64,000 nt of DNA. Origin: Actinopolymorpha singaporensis (lineage in GTDB: Bacteria > Actinomycetota > Actinomycetes > Propionibacteriales > Actinopolymorphaceae). Under the pieces are notes generated by a model. The model did no database searches. It saw only the letters and a program-made list of their open reading frames with translations, and was not told the origin of the DNA. The DNA lies in NCBI RefSeq assembly GCF_900104745.1, contig NZ_LT629732.1, forward strand, positions 3,273,981-3,337,980. Reading direction: 5' to 3'. Position 1 is the first letter of the stretch, and each line of letters starts with the position of its first letter. A program made the position numbers and the translations under genes. Positions 6,141-30,625 of this stretch are shown here, piece after piece.

Positions 6141-6511
6141 GGGGGTGAACGGTTTCGACTTCGTGCGATCGCTTCAGGGGAAGCGGGCCGAGGACCCAGG
6201 GTCGTCTCGTTAACGATCCCTGGAAACCAATAAGTGCCGATTCCAAGCGCACTAACTTCGCTCTCGCCGCCTGAGGCGAGCTGACGAAGGGTCAGCCCGG
6301 GAGTGCCTTCGGCCCGGGTCCTGATCTCATCAAGAGGGCTCACCTGTACGGACTGGCCACTGGGCCGTACGGGGAAATGAACGGTGGCTGGGCCCGTCGG
6401 CGACTTGCCTGTGAGAGCGCCGGGGCCGAGTAGAACGCCTAACAGGATGCGCCCGGAGAAGCCCTGAAACATCGACGAAGGACGCGGGTTCGATTCCCGC
6501 CACCTCCACCA
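6141..6511 (+). ncRNA. ssrA: transfer-messenger RNA (tmRNA)
   Basis: A 371-base one-piece tmRNA that rescues ribosomes stalled on broken messages, together with SmpB. The 5' end GGGGGUG pairs with CACCUCC near the 3' end to form the tRNA-like acceptor stem; discriminator A and an encoded CCA end the molecule at 6511. The T arm reads GCGGG-TTCGATT-CCCGC just before it. The 5' end continues GAACGGTTTCGACTTCG, the usual tmRNA start. A resume codon and tag frame lie at 6236-6274, and GC-rich pseudoknot segments fill 6275-6470. A strong terminator follows at once. smpB, often next to ssrA in this phylum, is not in the window. Confidence 0.97.
6236..6274 (+). other. tmRNA proteolysis-tag reading frame
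   Basis: Starting at the resume codon GCC (6236) the frame encodes ADSKRTNFALAA and stops at TGA (6272-6274). The ALAA end is the ClpXP/ClpAP-recognised degron common to tmRNA tags, and NFALAA is typical of actinobacteria. Confidence 0.93.
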
Positions 6512-25790: not shown

Positions 25791-26870
25791 ATGGTTCGAT
25801 CCCGGCGGATCGTGCTCGCGACCCTGGCCGCGCTGACGGCACTGACCGGCGCGGGGCCCGCCATCACCCCCGCCGGCGCGACCAGCACCCGGCCCGATCT
25901 CCCGGGCTCGGCGGCCTGGCAGCAGGCCTCCTTCGACGGGCGCCCACTGCCCAGCCTCACCGGAACGTCGCCGGCCTCGGTGGCGGCATACTTCGCCGGG
26001 TTGCCCGCCGCGGAGCGGAACCGACTGGCCGCGCGCTACCCCGCCGTGGTCGGCAACCTGGACGGCGCACCCCCTGTCATGCGGTACGCCGCCAACCGGC
26101 ACGAGGTGGCCAGGTCCGGTGTCTGGCGCGGCGTGCTGGACCTGCGCGACCGGCAGATCCTCGCGCTCGACCCCCGCGAACGCGGTCTCGCCGTCGAGGT
26201 GTTCGGCGATCTGGCGACCGCGGACCGGGTGGCCGTGCTGGTGCCCGGCGCGGGCGCGGACCTGTACCACCTGGACGAGCCCGGCGGAATTGCCGCCGGT
26301 GCCCGCGCCATGCGCGCGGAGGCCGAACGCCAGGACCCGGGCACCCGGTTGGCGGTGATCGCCTGGGCCGGATACGCCACTCCGGTCGACGCCGGGGCCG
26401 CCGCGATGCAGGGCAGTCTGGCCCGGGTGGGCGCGGGCCGGCTGCAGCGGTTCCTCGCCGGCCTGTCGGCGTACACCTCGGCCCCGATCGGGCTCTTCTG
26501 CCACAGTTACGGCTCGGTGGTGTGCGGCCTCAGCCACCTGCCCCGTCAGGTCGACGACATCGCGGTGTTCGGCAGTCCGGGGGTGCGGCACCGCACCGCG
26601 TCCAGCCTGACGCACACCGCCCGGGTCTGGGCGGGACTCGCCGCCGGTGACCCGATCAGGTACGTCCCGTTCGTACGCGTCGGCGACTACGGCCATGGGC
26701 CGAGCCCGGTGGCGCCCTCGTTCGGCGCCAAGGTCTTCGCCACCACGGGCGCCCGCGGCCACAGTGGCTACCTCACTCCCGGCACCGAGTCGTTGCGCAA
26801 CCTGGTGCGGATCGCGCTCGGCCACGAGGCCGCGGTCACGCCGGCGGCGCCCCCGCGGCCTCCCGCGTAG
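25791..26870 (+). CDS. exported DUF1023-type alpha/beta hydrolase
   Basis: A 359-residue secreted hydrolase. A signal peptide (LATLAALTALTGAGPAITPAGA) leads to a DUF1023 domain with VAVLVPGAGADLYHLDEPGG (oxyanion region), VIAWAGYATP, the nucleophile elbow LFCHSYGSVVCG and the C-terminal GARGHSGYLTPGTESLRN. The elbow has Cys where the family usually has Gly (G-H-S-Y-G), the Ser itself being kept. A paralogue at 47651 has the standard VGHSYGS. Between the signal peptide and the domain is an extra segment (LPAAERNRLAARYPAVVGNLDGAP) typical of longer members. It is 320 bases downstream of the kinase fusion, whose regulator may once have controlled it (inference). Confidence 0.85.
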   Translation: MVRSRRIVLATLAALTALTGAGPAITPAGATSTRPDLPGSAAWQQASFDGRPLPSLTGTSPASVAAYFAGLPAAERNRLAARYPAVVGNLDGAPPVMRYAANRHEVARSGVWRGVLDLRDRQILALDPRERGLAVEVFGDLATADRVAVLVPGAGADLYHLDEPGGIAAGARAMRAEAERQDPGTRLAVIAWAGYATPVDAGAAAMQGSLARVGAGRLQRFLAGLSAYTSAPIGLFCHSYGSVVCGLSHLPRQVDDIAVFGSPGVRHRTASSLTHTARVWAGLAAGDPIRYVPFVRVGDYGHGPSPVAPSFGAKVFATTGARGHSGYLTPGTESLRNLVRIALGHEAAVTPAAPPRPPA

Positions 26871-29029: not shown

Positions 29030-30178
29030 TCAGCGCCCCGCGGCCGCCCACTCCGAGACGGCGCCCTGGTGGAGTGCGGCGTAGACCCGGTCCCGCAACC
29101 GGTTGGCGTCGGCGTCGGTGAGGGTGCGGTCCAGTGCGCGGACCACCAGCCGGACCAGCACGTTCCGCTGGCCCGGCGCAATACCCAGCCGGGTCCGCGC
29201 GACCTCGGGCAGGTCGTCGTACGACGTCTCGGCCAGCACCTCGACGGTCTCCACGACGTCGGCGTCCGCACCCAGGGCCGAACGCACCCGGTCGCCGAGC
29301 AGTTCGGCCGACGTGTCCACGTCGGCATCCACCACGACGGACAGGTCGCGGCGTACCGGCGGCTGGTGGGAGACGGGGCGGTACGCCGACCGATCGAGCA
29401 TCTGGCCGGCCACCCGGGGGTCGGCCGACCGCAACAGCCGGATGTCCGGGACGCCCTTGCCGAGCATCAGCAGCCGGTCCAGCCCGAGTCCCATCGCCAG
29501 GCCGCTCCAGGTGGGTACGGGCAGTCCGGCGCCGGCCAGCACACCGGGCGCGGCCAGCCCGCACTCGCCGATCTCCACCCAGCGACCCTGCCACCACACG
29601 TCGATCTGACGGCCGTGTTCGGTGTAGGGGTGGACCTTCGGTTCGGTGCGCCAGCGACTGCCCGGGAGCGCCGCCTCCACCACCCGCCCGATCATCTCGC
29701 CGAGGTCGGGGTCGGTGCAGGGCCGGTCGCGGCGAATCCGCCACAGGTCGAGCTGGTGCGGCGTGCCCGTGTGCTGCCAGTCGATGCTGTCCCGCCGGTA
29801 ACACATGCCGGGACAGACCAGCAGCACGTCGGCCGGTGACCCGTCGGGACCGGCCTCGCCCTCGGCGGCCAGCCGGCGGAGAGCGCCCGGGACCATCGCG
29901 CTGCTGTGGCTGCGCAGCACGTGACCGGCGTCGACGTAGCGGGTGTAGCGCTCCTCGCGGGTCACGGCATCGGCGGCGTAACCCAGGTTGTCGTAGTTGT
30001 CGGCGAGGGAGACGACGGGAGAGGACCGTACGACGCGGACCTCGGCGTCCCAGGCCGAACCCAGGGCGGCGGCCAGGTCGTCGACCACGAGTTGCAGGGC
30101 GTGCGGGCCCTGTGCCGGGTCGGACAGGTCACGGATCGAGAGACAGGCTCGCAGCTGCGCGGGCGAAAGAATCGACAT
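29030..30178 (-). CDS. single-chain PheRS-like protein (class II core + FDX-ACB)
   Basis: A 382-residue protein made of a class II aminoacyl-tRNA synthetase core like PheS and a C-terminal ferredoxin-fold anticodon-binding (FDX-ACB) domain normally found on PheT; the combination resembles mitochondrial PheRS. Motif 1 is HVLRSHSSAM, motif 2 CYRRDSIDWQHTGTPHQLDLW, motif 3 GLAMGLGLDRLLMLGKGVPDIR; FDX-ACB spans about 275-375 (VRRDLSVVVDADVD). The N-terminal coiled coil of bacterial PheS is missing. The Phe-pocket segment, F-P-F-T-E in PheS, reads V182-H-P-Y-T-E, so both pocket Phe residues are replaced (His183, Tyr185). It is therefore probably not a normal PheRS; it may charge another amino acid or work off tRNA. 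ATG at 30178. Confidence 0.82.
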   Translation of the reverse strand: MSILSPAQLRACLSIRDLSDPAQGPHALQLVVDDLAAALGSAWDAEVRVVRSSPVVSLADNYDNLGYAADAVTREERYTRYVDAGHVLRSHSSAMVPGALRRLAAEGEAGPDGSPADVLLVCPGMCYRRDSIDWQHTGTPHQLDLWRIRRDRPCTDPDLGEMIGRVVEAALPGSRWRTEPKVHPYTEHGRQIDVWWQGRWVEIGECGLAAPGVLAGAGLPVPTWSGLAMGLGLDRLLMLGKGVPDIRLLRSADPRVAGQMLDRSAYRPVSHQPPVRRDLSVVVDADVDTSAELLGDRVRSALGADADVVETVEVLAETSYDDLPEVARTRLGIAPGQRNVLVRLVVRALDRTLTDADANRLRDRVYAALHQGAVSEWAAAGR

Positions 30179-30625
30179 CGGAGTACTCCTCGAAGGATCG
30201 TTCGCGGTGGGGAACGGAGTGAAGGGACTCACACACCCCGACCGGCCGCGAGGAGATCCACCGAGGAGAACGCCGCCGACGGCGCCCGGTGGTTCGCGTT
30301 CAGGCGAACGCGGCACCCGGGCATGCCCGGCACTCCACCCCGACGGCACCGCGGTGCCGGCCGGGGCGGGGAAATCGCTGCCCGGGTACGCCCATGCGGA
30401 CAAAGGTACGCGCCCGAGACCGCGTACCGCCATGGCCTCCACAGGCGAGGTCCGAACGAGTCCGAGCCAGGTCCGACGAGAGCCTGAGGAGGTCGATCTC
30501 CTCCTCAGGGCGGACATCGAGGTGGGCAAACTCCACCCGGCGGGTCACGCCGCAGGGTTGCCCACCGCCTACGGTTGGGGACGCCAGCAGGCCAGCTGTG
30601 CGAACCAAGGTGTCGGGAGGCATCC
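30179..30625. other. 447-base intergenic region between divergent PheRS-like and ABC genes
   Basis: No gene supported. TACGGT at about 30570-30575 could be the -10 of the ABC operon, and GGGAGG precedes its GTG. The half nearer the PheRS-like gene shows no T-box: I do not see the conserved TGGNACCGCG antiterminator sequence on the minus strand. Confidence 0.4.

What the first reader, a model, noticed from the sequence alone, without database searches (positions are those of the whole stretch)
29030..30178. Single-chain PheRS-like protein with an altered amino-acid pocket
The protein joins a PheS-type class II core to the FDX-ACB domain of PheT, as in mitochondrial PheRS, and drops the N-terminal tRNA-binding coiled coil. 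The pocket segment that is F-P-F-T-E in bacterial PheS (Phe258 and Phe260 in E. coli numbering, from memory) reads H183-P-Y185-T-E here, while the motif 2 Arg pair and motif 3 are kept. So ATP chemistry is probably intact, but phenylalanine is not the expected substrate. It may charge a different (perhaps non-protein or aromatic) amino acid or feed an off-ribosome pathway. No pheST operon is nearby, so this is probably an accessory copy.
Basis: partly seen in the sequence, partly recalled or inferred. Interest (0 to 1): 0.72.

Follow-up and report, generated by a model that had tools for sequence, protein, structure and literature searches.

The report
Inducible single-chain PheRS-like tRNA ligase
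The gene encodes a one-piece relative of the enzyme that loads phenylalanine onto its tRNA, and most of its bacterial relatives sit behind a conserved switch that appears to turn the gene on when phenylalanine-loaded tRNA runs short, so it looks like an emergency, possibly drug-resistant, spare for an essential enzyme.

Summary
In detail: window 29030-30178 (minus strand) encodes a 382-aa PheS core plus FDX-ACB domain, with HPYT where PheS has FPFT. It belongs to NCBIfam NF051887, 'PheS-related mystery ligase SrmL', which has no assigned function. His and Tyr are fixed in 51/51 homologues, with further fixed changes around the amino-acid site (G271E, E210D, L212W; E. coli numbering). Fold and profile are closest to mitochondrial PheRS.

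New here is the regulation. Most bacterial SrmL genes follow a leader ORF, usually leaderless, with one Phe codon (TTT in 49/55, against 4.8% background) about 5 nt before an RNA arm that can pair with either of two downstream arms. The full device occurs at 42/57 SrmL genes and 0/772 control genes. A stringent version of the motif hit 12 places in 289 genomes: 10 before SrmL, 2 before canonical pheS. So SrmL is wired as a phenylalanyl-tRNA synthetase, induced when Phe-tRNA(Phe) is short.

Homologues on resistance plasmids and in tRNA-rich jumbo phages fit an accessory, perhaps inhibitor-resistant, tRNA-charging enzyme, resembling the auxiliary indolmycin-resistant TrpRS.

The parts
29030..30178 (-). 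SrmL-family gene, 382 aa: class II PheS-like catalytic core (residues ~49-259) plus FDX-ACB tRNA/anticodon-binding domain (270-371)
   Evidence: NF051887, 523 bits, cut-off 300; AlphaFold2 pLDDT 90.6; closest fold human mitochondrial PheRS 3cmq, TM 0.77
29624..29632 (-). codons of H183-P184-Y185, the pocket segment equivalent to F248-P-F250 of E. coli PheS
   Evidence: H183 51/51 and Y185 51/51 in SrmL; F248 32/33 and F250 28/33 (Tyr 5/33) in PheS
29564..29566 (-). codon of E205, at the position of invariant Gly271 of E. coli PheS (lGCG changed to ECG)
   Evidence: Glu 51/51 in SrmL, Gly 33/33 in PheS
30300..30395 (-). leader ORF MGVPGQRFPRPGRHRGAVGVECRACPGAAFA*, with rare codons CGA-TTT (30377-30372)
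   Evidence: homologous leader ORFs at most bacterial SrmL genes and at four canonical pheS genes
30403..30408 (-). TACCTT, -10-like element 7 nt upstream of the leader ATG, so the leader ORF is probably leaderless
   Evidence: a TANNNT element is in 45 of 55 leaders
30354..30367 (-). 5' arm GCCCCGGCCGGCAC, starting 4 nt after the Phe codon (its CCCC run starts 5 nt after)
30338..30349 (-). proximal 3' arm GTGCCGTCGGGG inside the leader ORF (alternative hairpin)
   Evidence: duplex -20.2 kcal/mol
30234..30247 (-). distal 3' arm GGCCGGTCGGGGTG between the leader stop and SrmL (attenuator pairing)
   Evidence: duplex -27.3 kcal/mol; across species own -23.7 against mismatched -20.0 (SD 0.37)
30186..30191 (-). 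GAGGAG ribosome-binding site of SrmL

Best explanation
SrmL is an accessory, single-chain aminoacyl-tRNA synthetase of the mitochondrial-PheRS type. It is made on demand by ribosome-mediated attenuation that senses Phe-tRNA(Phe). When charged tRNA(Phe) is plentiful, a ribosome runs through the leader ORF and the 5' arm pairs with the distal arm, which blocks expression. When it is scarce (starvation, or inhibition of the main PheST enzyme), the ribosome stalls at the UUU codon about 5 nt before the 5' arm, covers that arm, and lets SrmL be made. SrmL then charges the single tRNA(Phe), most likely with phenylalanine held in a re-engineered pocket that would tolerate inhibitors of the ordinary enzyme. 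Shown by sequence: gene, fold, fixed pocket, leader ORF, Phe codon, covarying arms, sharing of the leader with pheS, plasmid and phage homologues. Inferred: stalling, the direction of the switch, Phe as substrate, inhibitor resistance.
For: Phe is present at the same place in essentially every leader; TTT 49/55 against 4.8% of Phe codons in the background, while the preceding codon varies (CGA, CTG, TGG, ACC) and six leaders use TTC, so the amino acid and not only the DNA is kept. The complete device is found at 44/57 bacterial SrmL loci (42 with TTT) and 2/772 control genes (0 with TTT). Arm and distal arm covary (own -23.7, swapped between species -20.0, SD 0.37), with U-tract terminators in some, e.g. 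the Azotobacter plasmid copy. A stringent leader motif had 12 hits in 289 genomes: 10 directly before SrmL and 2 directly before canonical pheS in genomes where no SrmL was found, control pattern 0. Two further pheS leaders appeared among 30 pheS loci sampled. FDX-ACB domain and motif 2/3 Arg are kept. Phage copies lie in or near tRNA and aaRS islands, with no other PheS gene in the three contigs tested. Plasmid copies lie beside cmx, tet(33), erm(X), tet(65). The host has a standard set of 45 tRNAs with one tRNA(Phe) and no orphan tRNA.
Against: The amino-acid pocket is changed at positions fixed or nearly fixed in every PheS examined (F248H, G271E, E210D, L212W), so Phe binding is not assured. 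Canonical U-tract terminators are visible only in some leaders, so termination may be Rho-dependent or otherwise. Several SrmL loci (e.g. L124, L026) and all phage copies lack the leader. No inhibitor of PheRS that would select for SrmL is known to me, and the resistance-gene neighbours may be passengers (the Corynebacterium copies are fragments).
Confidence: 0.66

Rival explanations
1. SrmL charges tRNA(Phe), or another tRNA, with an amino acid other than Phe (for example a polar aromatic amino acid, His, or a Phe analogue), for a specialised translational or non-ribosomal use.
For: Fixed polar and acidic residues H183, Y185, E205, D144 in the amino-acid site.
Against: A Phe-codon leader shared with canonical pheS. 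A single tRNA(Phe) in the genome, so charging it with another amino acid would mistranslate. No conserved partner gene. Phage copies in or near islands of ordinary tRNAs and synthetases.
Confidence: 0.2
2. SrmL does not charge tRNA for protein synthesis but uses an aminoacyl-adenylate or a tRNA to modify a protein, lipid or small molecule (like EpmA, LysX-type or amide-ligase systems), possibly inactivating an antibiotic.
For: Stand-alone paralogues of synthetases often have such roles (general knowledge). Resistance genes beside the plasmid copies.
Against: FDX-ACB domain kept, with invariant P273, R277, D278, S280. Leader tuned to Phe-tRNA. No acceptor or transferase gene conserved nearby.
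Confidence: 0.09
3. The leader responds to an antibiotic or to general ribosome stalling at its RF..PRP peptide rather than to Phe-tRNA, so that SrmL is simply one gene of a drug-inducible set.
For: The leader peptide is conserved beyond Phe; plasmid copies sit with resistance genes.
Against: Selection is for the codon TTT and not only the residue; the residues around Phe vary; the same leader precedes pheS.
Confidence: 0.05

Closest known systems
NCBIfam NF051887 'PheS-related mystery ligase SrmL'
   Same: Same family: 523 bits against a cut-off of 300, full length; phage homologues L154 and L164 also pass.
   Different: The family has no assigned function and I found no paper on it. The leader, the plasmid and phage homologues and the Phe link are new here.
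Human mitochondrial PheRS (FARS2; PDB 3cmq, 5mgu)
   Same: Single chain, class II core followed by an FDX-ACB domain; best profile hit (1.8e-34) and best fold (TM 0.77).
   Different: FARS2 keeps the FPFT pocket, GCG and motif 3 ER; SrmL has HPYT, ECG and DR, and about 21% identity.
Auxiliary, indolmycin-resistant TrpRS of Streptomyces, regulated by ribosome-mediated transcriptional attenuation (Vecchione and Sello 2009, 2010; Kitabatake 2002; cited in PMC6804068 and PMC4787780)
   Same: A second copy of an aromatic-amino-acid synthetase behind a leader ORF that senses its own amino acid.
   Different: Different class (I versus II) and amino acid; SrmL is not a duplicate of the host enzyme but a single-chain form; inhibitor resistance untested.
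E. coli pheM leader of pheST
   Same: Attenuation of a PheRS operon by a Phe-codon leader peptide (pheM annotated upstream of pheS; mechanism from general knowledge).
   Different: The actinobacterial leader has one conserved Phe codon, is mostly leaderless, and is unrelated in sequence. A 2005 survey of about 20 actinobacterial genomes found no conserved RNA element for Phe genes (PMC1262725).

Membership tests
NF051887 SrmL | full-length match above the curated cut-off of 300 bits | tested here: met
   523.2 bits, profile 1-349/349
Phenylalanine--tRNA ligase (TIGR00468 PheS, TIGR00469 mitochondrial) | match above the curated cut-offs | tested here: not met
   83.7 bits against 237; 130.6 against 258
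Phenylalanine--tRNA ligase | FPF pocket and G271 (E. coli numbering) | tested here: not met
   H183, Y185, E205 in 51/51 homologues
Phenylalanine--tRNA ligase | class II motif 2 and motif 3 arginines | tested here: met
   R128 and R235 invariant in SrmL and PheS
Phenylalanine--tRNA ligase | FDX-ACB tRNA-binding domain | tested here: met
   PF03147 32.6 bits against 31.1; whole-length fold match to 3cmq
Phenylalanine--tRNA ligase | charges tRNA(Phe) with Phe | not testable with these tools
   needs an enzyme assay
Ribosome-mediated attenuator | leader ORF with regulatory codons just before the switching arm | tested here: met
   Phe codon, gap of 5 nt in 46/55 as scored; 42/57 against 0/772 controls
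Ribosome-mediated attenuator | two mutually exclusive pairings of one arm | tested here: met
   5' arm pairs with the proximal or the distal arm; both beat arms swapped between species
Ribosome-mediated attenuator | intrinsic terminator before the gene | tested here: inconclusive
   clear U-tract only in some (L149, L019, L022, L023, L025, L029)
Auxiliary antibiotic-resistant aaRS | second synthetase beside the housekeeping one | tested here: met
   canonical pheS in G000 and in 58/58 genomes of the order
Auxiliary antibiotic-resistant aaRS | confers resistance to a synthetase inhibitor | not testable with these tools
   only indirect: cmx, tet(33), erm(X), tet(65) beside plasmid copies

The most novel reading that the evidence does not exclude
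SrmL is a mobile, Phe-tRNA-inducible PheRS that evolved a new amino-acid pocket under selection by a natural PheRS inhibitor not yet discovered. It would be a resistance determinant carried by plasmids, and jumbo phages would use it to keep their own translation going.
Probability: 0.4. Interest if true: 0.86.

Novelty: new variant of a known kind. Interest (0 to 1): 0.74.

Why it matters
A protein family named only 'mystery ligase' gets a testable function. A Phe-sensing attenuator shared by pheS and SrmL appears not to have been described in actinobacteria: a 2005 survey found none (PMC1262725), and Rfam has no match at 21 SrmL loci. If SrmL resists inhibitors, it warns of ready-made resistance to PheRS drugs, a class pursued against tuberculosis and malaria, and hints at an unknown natural PheRS inhibitor. 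The altered pocket may also be of use for genetic-code expansion.

Tried and rejected
Conserved gene neighbours: none beyond shared local synteny, so no pathway partner. Cysteine-sensing idea: Kribbella leaders end in CCC, but most other genera lack Cys codons there and Cys-bearing short ORFs also occur upstream of control genes (13/54, nearly all Kribbella, against 89/769); dropped in favour of Phe once the common core was seen. T-box or other known riboswitch: no Rfam match upstream. A dedicated odd tRNA in the genome: none, 45 ordinary tRNAs. A looser leader motif across 395 genomes of the class gave two hits, both chance matches away from any SrmL or pheS gene. Papers on SrmL or on a self-resistant PheRS: none found. 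The tree separates SrmL from PheS on one long branch; the support value of that split is not informative because of the rooting.

Full report
1. The observation. The reading frame 30178..29030 on the minus strand encodes 382 residues with a PheS-like class II core and a C-terminal FDX-ACB domain. It is a full-length member of NCBIfam NF051887, 'PheS-related mystery ligase SrmL' (523 bits, cut-off 300), and falls below the cut-offs of the true PheRS models. The genome (6.40 Mb, one contig; nearest named relative Actinopolymorpha rutila, 93% identity in this protein) also has an ordinary PheS with FPFT 1.4 Mb away. The alignment confirms that H183-P-Y185-T lies on F248-P-F250-T251 of E. coli PheS.

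2. How unusual the pocket is. I compared 51 SrmL proteins (actinobacteria, a Gammaproteobacterium, phages) with 33 PheS. His183, Tyr185, Glu205, Asp144 and Trp146 are in all 51. The corresponding PheS residues are Phe248 (32/33), Phe250 (28/33, Tyr in the other 5), Gly271 (33/33), Glu210 (33/33) and Leu/Phe212. The Tyr is therefore not decisive; the His, Glu, Asp and Trp are. Motif 2 Arg128 and motif 3 Arg235 are invariant in both sets. Close pairs give dN/dS of 0.05-0.24. This is a constrained active site, not decay.

3. Fold. AlphaFold2 gives pLDDT 90.6. The best solved match over the whole chain is human mitochondrial PheRS (3cmq, TM 0.77; profile E 1.8e-34 to 5mgu). SrmL keeps the single-chain architecture but not the FPF/GCG pocket of that enzyme.

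4. Distribution. SrmL is accessory. It was found in 58 of 294 genomes of the order (every Actinopolymorpha in the sample and most or all of g241, apparently Kribbella; patchy in other families), 26 of 395 of the class and 2 of 396 of a phylum-wide sample. All 58 genomes checked in the order keep canonical PheS. No gene is conserved next to SrmL across genera. Copies occur on plasmids: Azotobacter chroococcum; Glutamicibacter nicotianae, beside cmx with tet(33) about 8 kb away; and fragments between erm(X) and tet(65) in Corynebacterium. The Glutamicibacter segment, including cmx and SrmL, is 91-97% identical in DNA to a chromosomal segment of a genome from another order, so the block moves. 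Homologues also occur in four jumbo-phage contigs of 508-635 kb with 59-71 tRNA genes each. In one, SrmL sits among 28 tRNA genes with genes for LysRS, SerRS and TrpRS-, HisRS- and GlyRS-like proteins. In another it directly follows tRNA-Phe and tRNA-Val. In a third the gene overlaps the end of a PNKP-like nucleic-acid-repair gene. No other PheS gene was found in the three contigs tested; a weak PF01409 hit in one is the LysRS gene.

5. The leader. Upstream of SrmL I found a conserved short ORF. In the window it is MGVPGQRFPRPGRHRGAVGVECRACPGAAFA (30395-30300), seven nt after TACCTT. In Nocardioidaceae it is of the type MSWQQRFSSPRPGNGRGVLDVRL. A version is in the Azotobacter plasmid, in another phylum. 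Of 55 leaders, 45 have a TANNNT element just upstream of the start codon, so most are probably leaderless. Phe is constant. It is TTT in 49/55, against 4.8% of Phe codons in the surrounding genes. The codon before it varies (CGA 37, CTG 6, TGG 4, others), and six leaders have TTC. A C-rich arm starts 5 nt after the Phe codon in 46/55 as scored (the window and L120 also have this spacing by eye). It can pair with a proximal arm inside the ORF or with a distal arm beyond its stop. Own arm-distal pairs average -23.7 kcal/mol, against -20.0 (SD 0.37) when arms are swapped between species. In the Azotobacter plasmid the distal hairpin is a textbook terminator ending in TTTTCTTTT. The complete device is at 42/57 SrmL loci with TTT, and 0/772 control genes. 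Related sequences are not independent, so these counts overstate the number of separate events, but they span many genera and two phyla.

6. The leader belongs to PheRS genes. A stringent motif scanned over 289 genomes of the order gave 12 hits and none for the reversed control. Ten are directly upstream of SrmL. The other two are directly upstream of canonical pheS in genomes in which no SrmL was found. Two more canonical pheS genes, out of 30 examined, have a leader of the same kind (VDTSLRFLRPGPGPSGS, CGA-TTT, same spacing, duplex -24.5). A looser motif over 395 genomes of the class found no other gene under it. A 2005 survey reported no conserved RNA element upstream of phenylalanine genes in the actinobacteria then sequenced, but did predict attenuators at trpS2 and leuS (PMC1262725).

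7. Interpretation. A leader sensing Phe-tRNA(Phe), shared with pheS, on a gene for a single-chain PheRS-like protein says that the cell treats SrmL as a supplier of charged tRNA(Phe). The genome has 45 ordinary tRNA genes and one tRNA(Phe), so charging it with anything but Phe would mistranslate. The parallel is the auxiliary indolmycin-resistant TrpRS of Streptomyces, which is under ribosome-mediated attenuation (Vecchione and Sello; Kitabatake; cited in PMC6804068 and PMC4787780). The altered pocket would then be the means of escaping an inhibitor of the ordinary enzyme. That last step is inference: I know of no such natural inhibitor, and no assay could be run here.

8. What remains open. 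The substrate; whether the switch works by intrinsic or Rho-dependent termination (clear U-tracts only in some leaders); why some loci and the phages lack the leader; and why Kribbella leaders end in three Cys codons.

Noticed in passing
L154 (IMGVR_UViG_3300049793_000366, 508-kb phage contig): Phage island with 28 tRNA genes and genes for LysRS, SerRS and TrpRS-, HisRS- and GlyRS-like proteins, several beside their cognate tRNAs; one tRNA is reported with a four-base anticodon (ggaa).
   Followed up: partly
L155 9995 (517-kb phage contig): The SrmL start overlaps the end of a PNKP-like end-healing gene (HAD phosphatase plus AAA_33 kinase), suggesting coupling with nucleic-acid or tRNA repair.
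   Followed up: no
L005-L012, L024 (Kribbella), about 90 nt upstream of SrmL: Kribbella SrmL leaders end in GVSCCCALS (GVGCCCALS in L024); the triple Cys resembles cysteine leader peptides and is unexplained.
   Followed up: partly
L150 8110-20769 and L127: A block with cmx, SrmL and, in a separate matching piece, tet(33) is 91-97% identical in DNA between a Glutamicibacter plasmid and a chromosome of another order.
   Followed up: partly
L199, L206, L235, L236: Canonical pheS genes with the same Phe-codon leader device; no SrmL was found in these genomes.
   Followed up: yes
L161 (IMGVR_UViG_3300047323_000673, 181 kb): Contig called viral but carrying a tmRNA and DUF4116 repeat genes, probably bacterial, with an SrmL homologue close to the phage ones.
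   Followed up: partly
window 26042-26134: ARAGORN reports a 93-nt tRNA-Asp inside a coding frame; it is not among the 45 tRNAs found by Infernal, so probably spurious.
   Followed up: partly
window 6141-6511: tmRNA gene with tag ADSKRTNFALAA.
   Followed up: no
G403 (apparently Kribbella), contigs 9 and 50: Two SrmL copies in one genome; for the second (L124) no leader was found.
   Followed up: no
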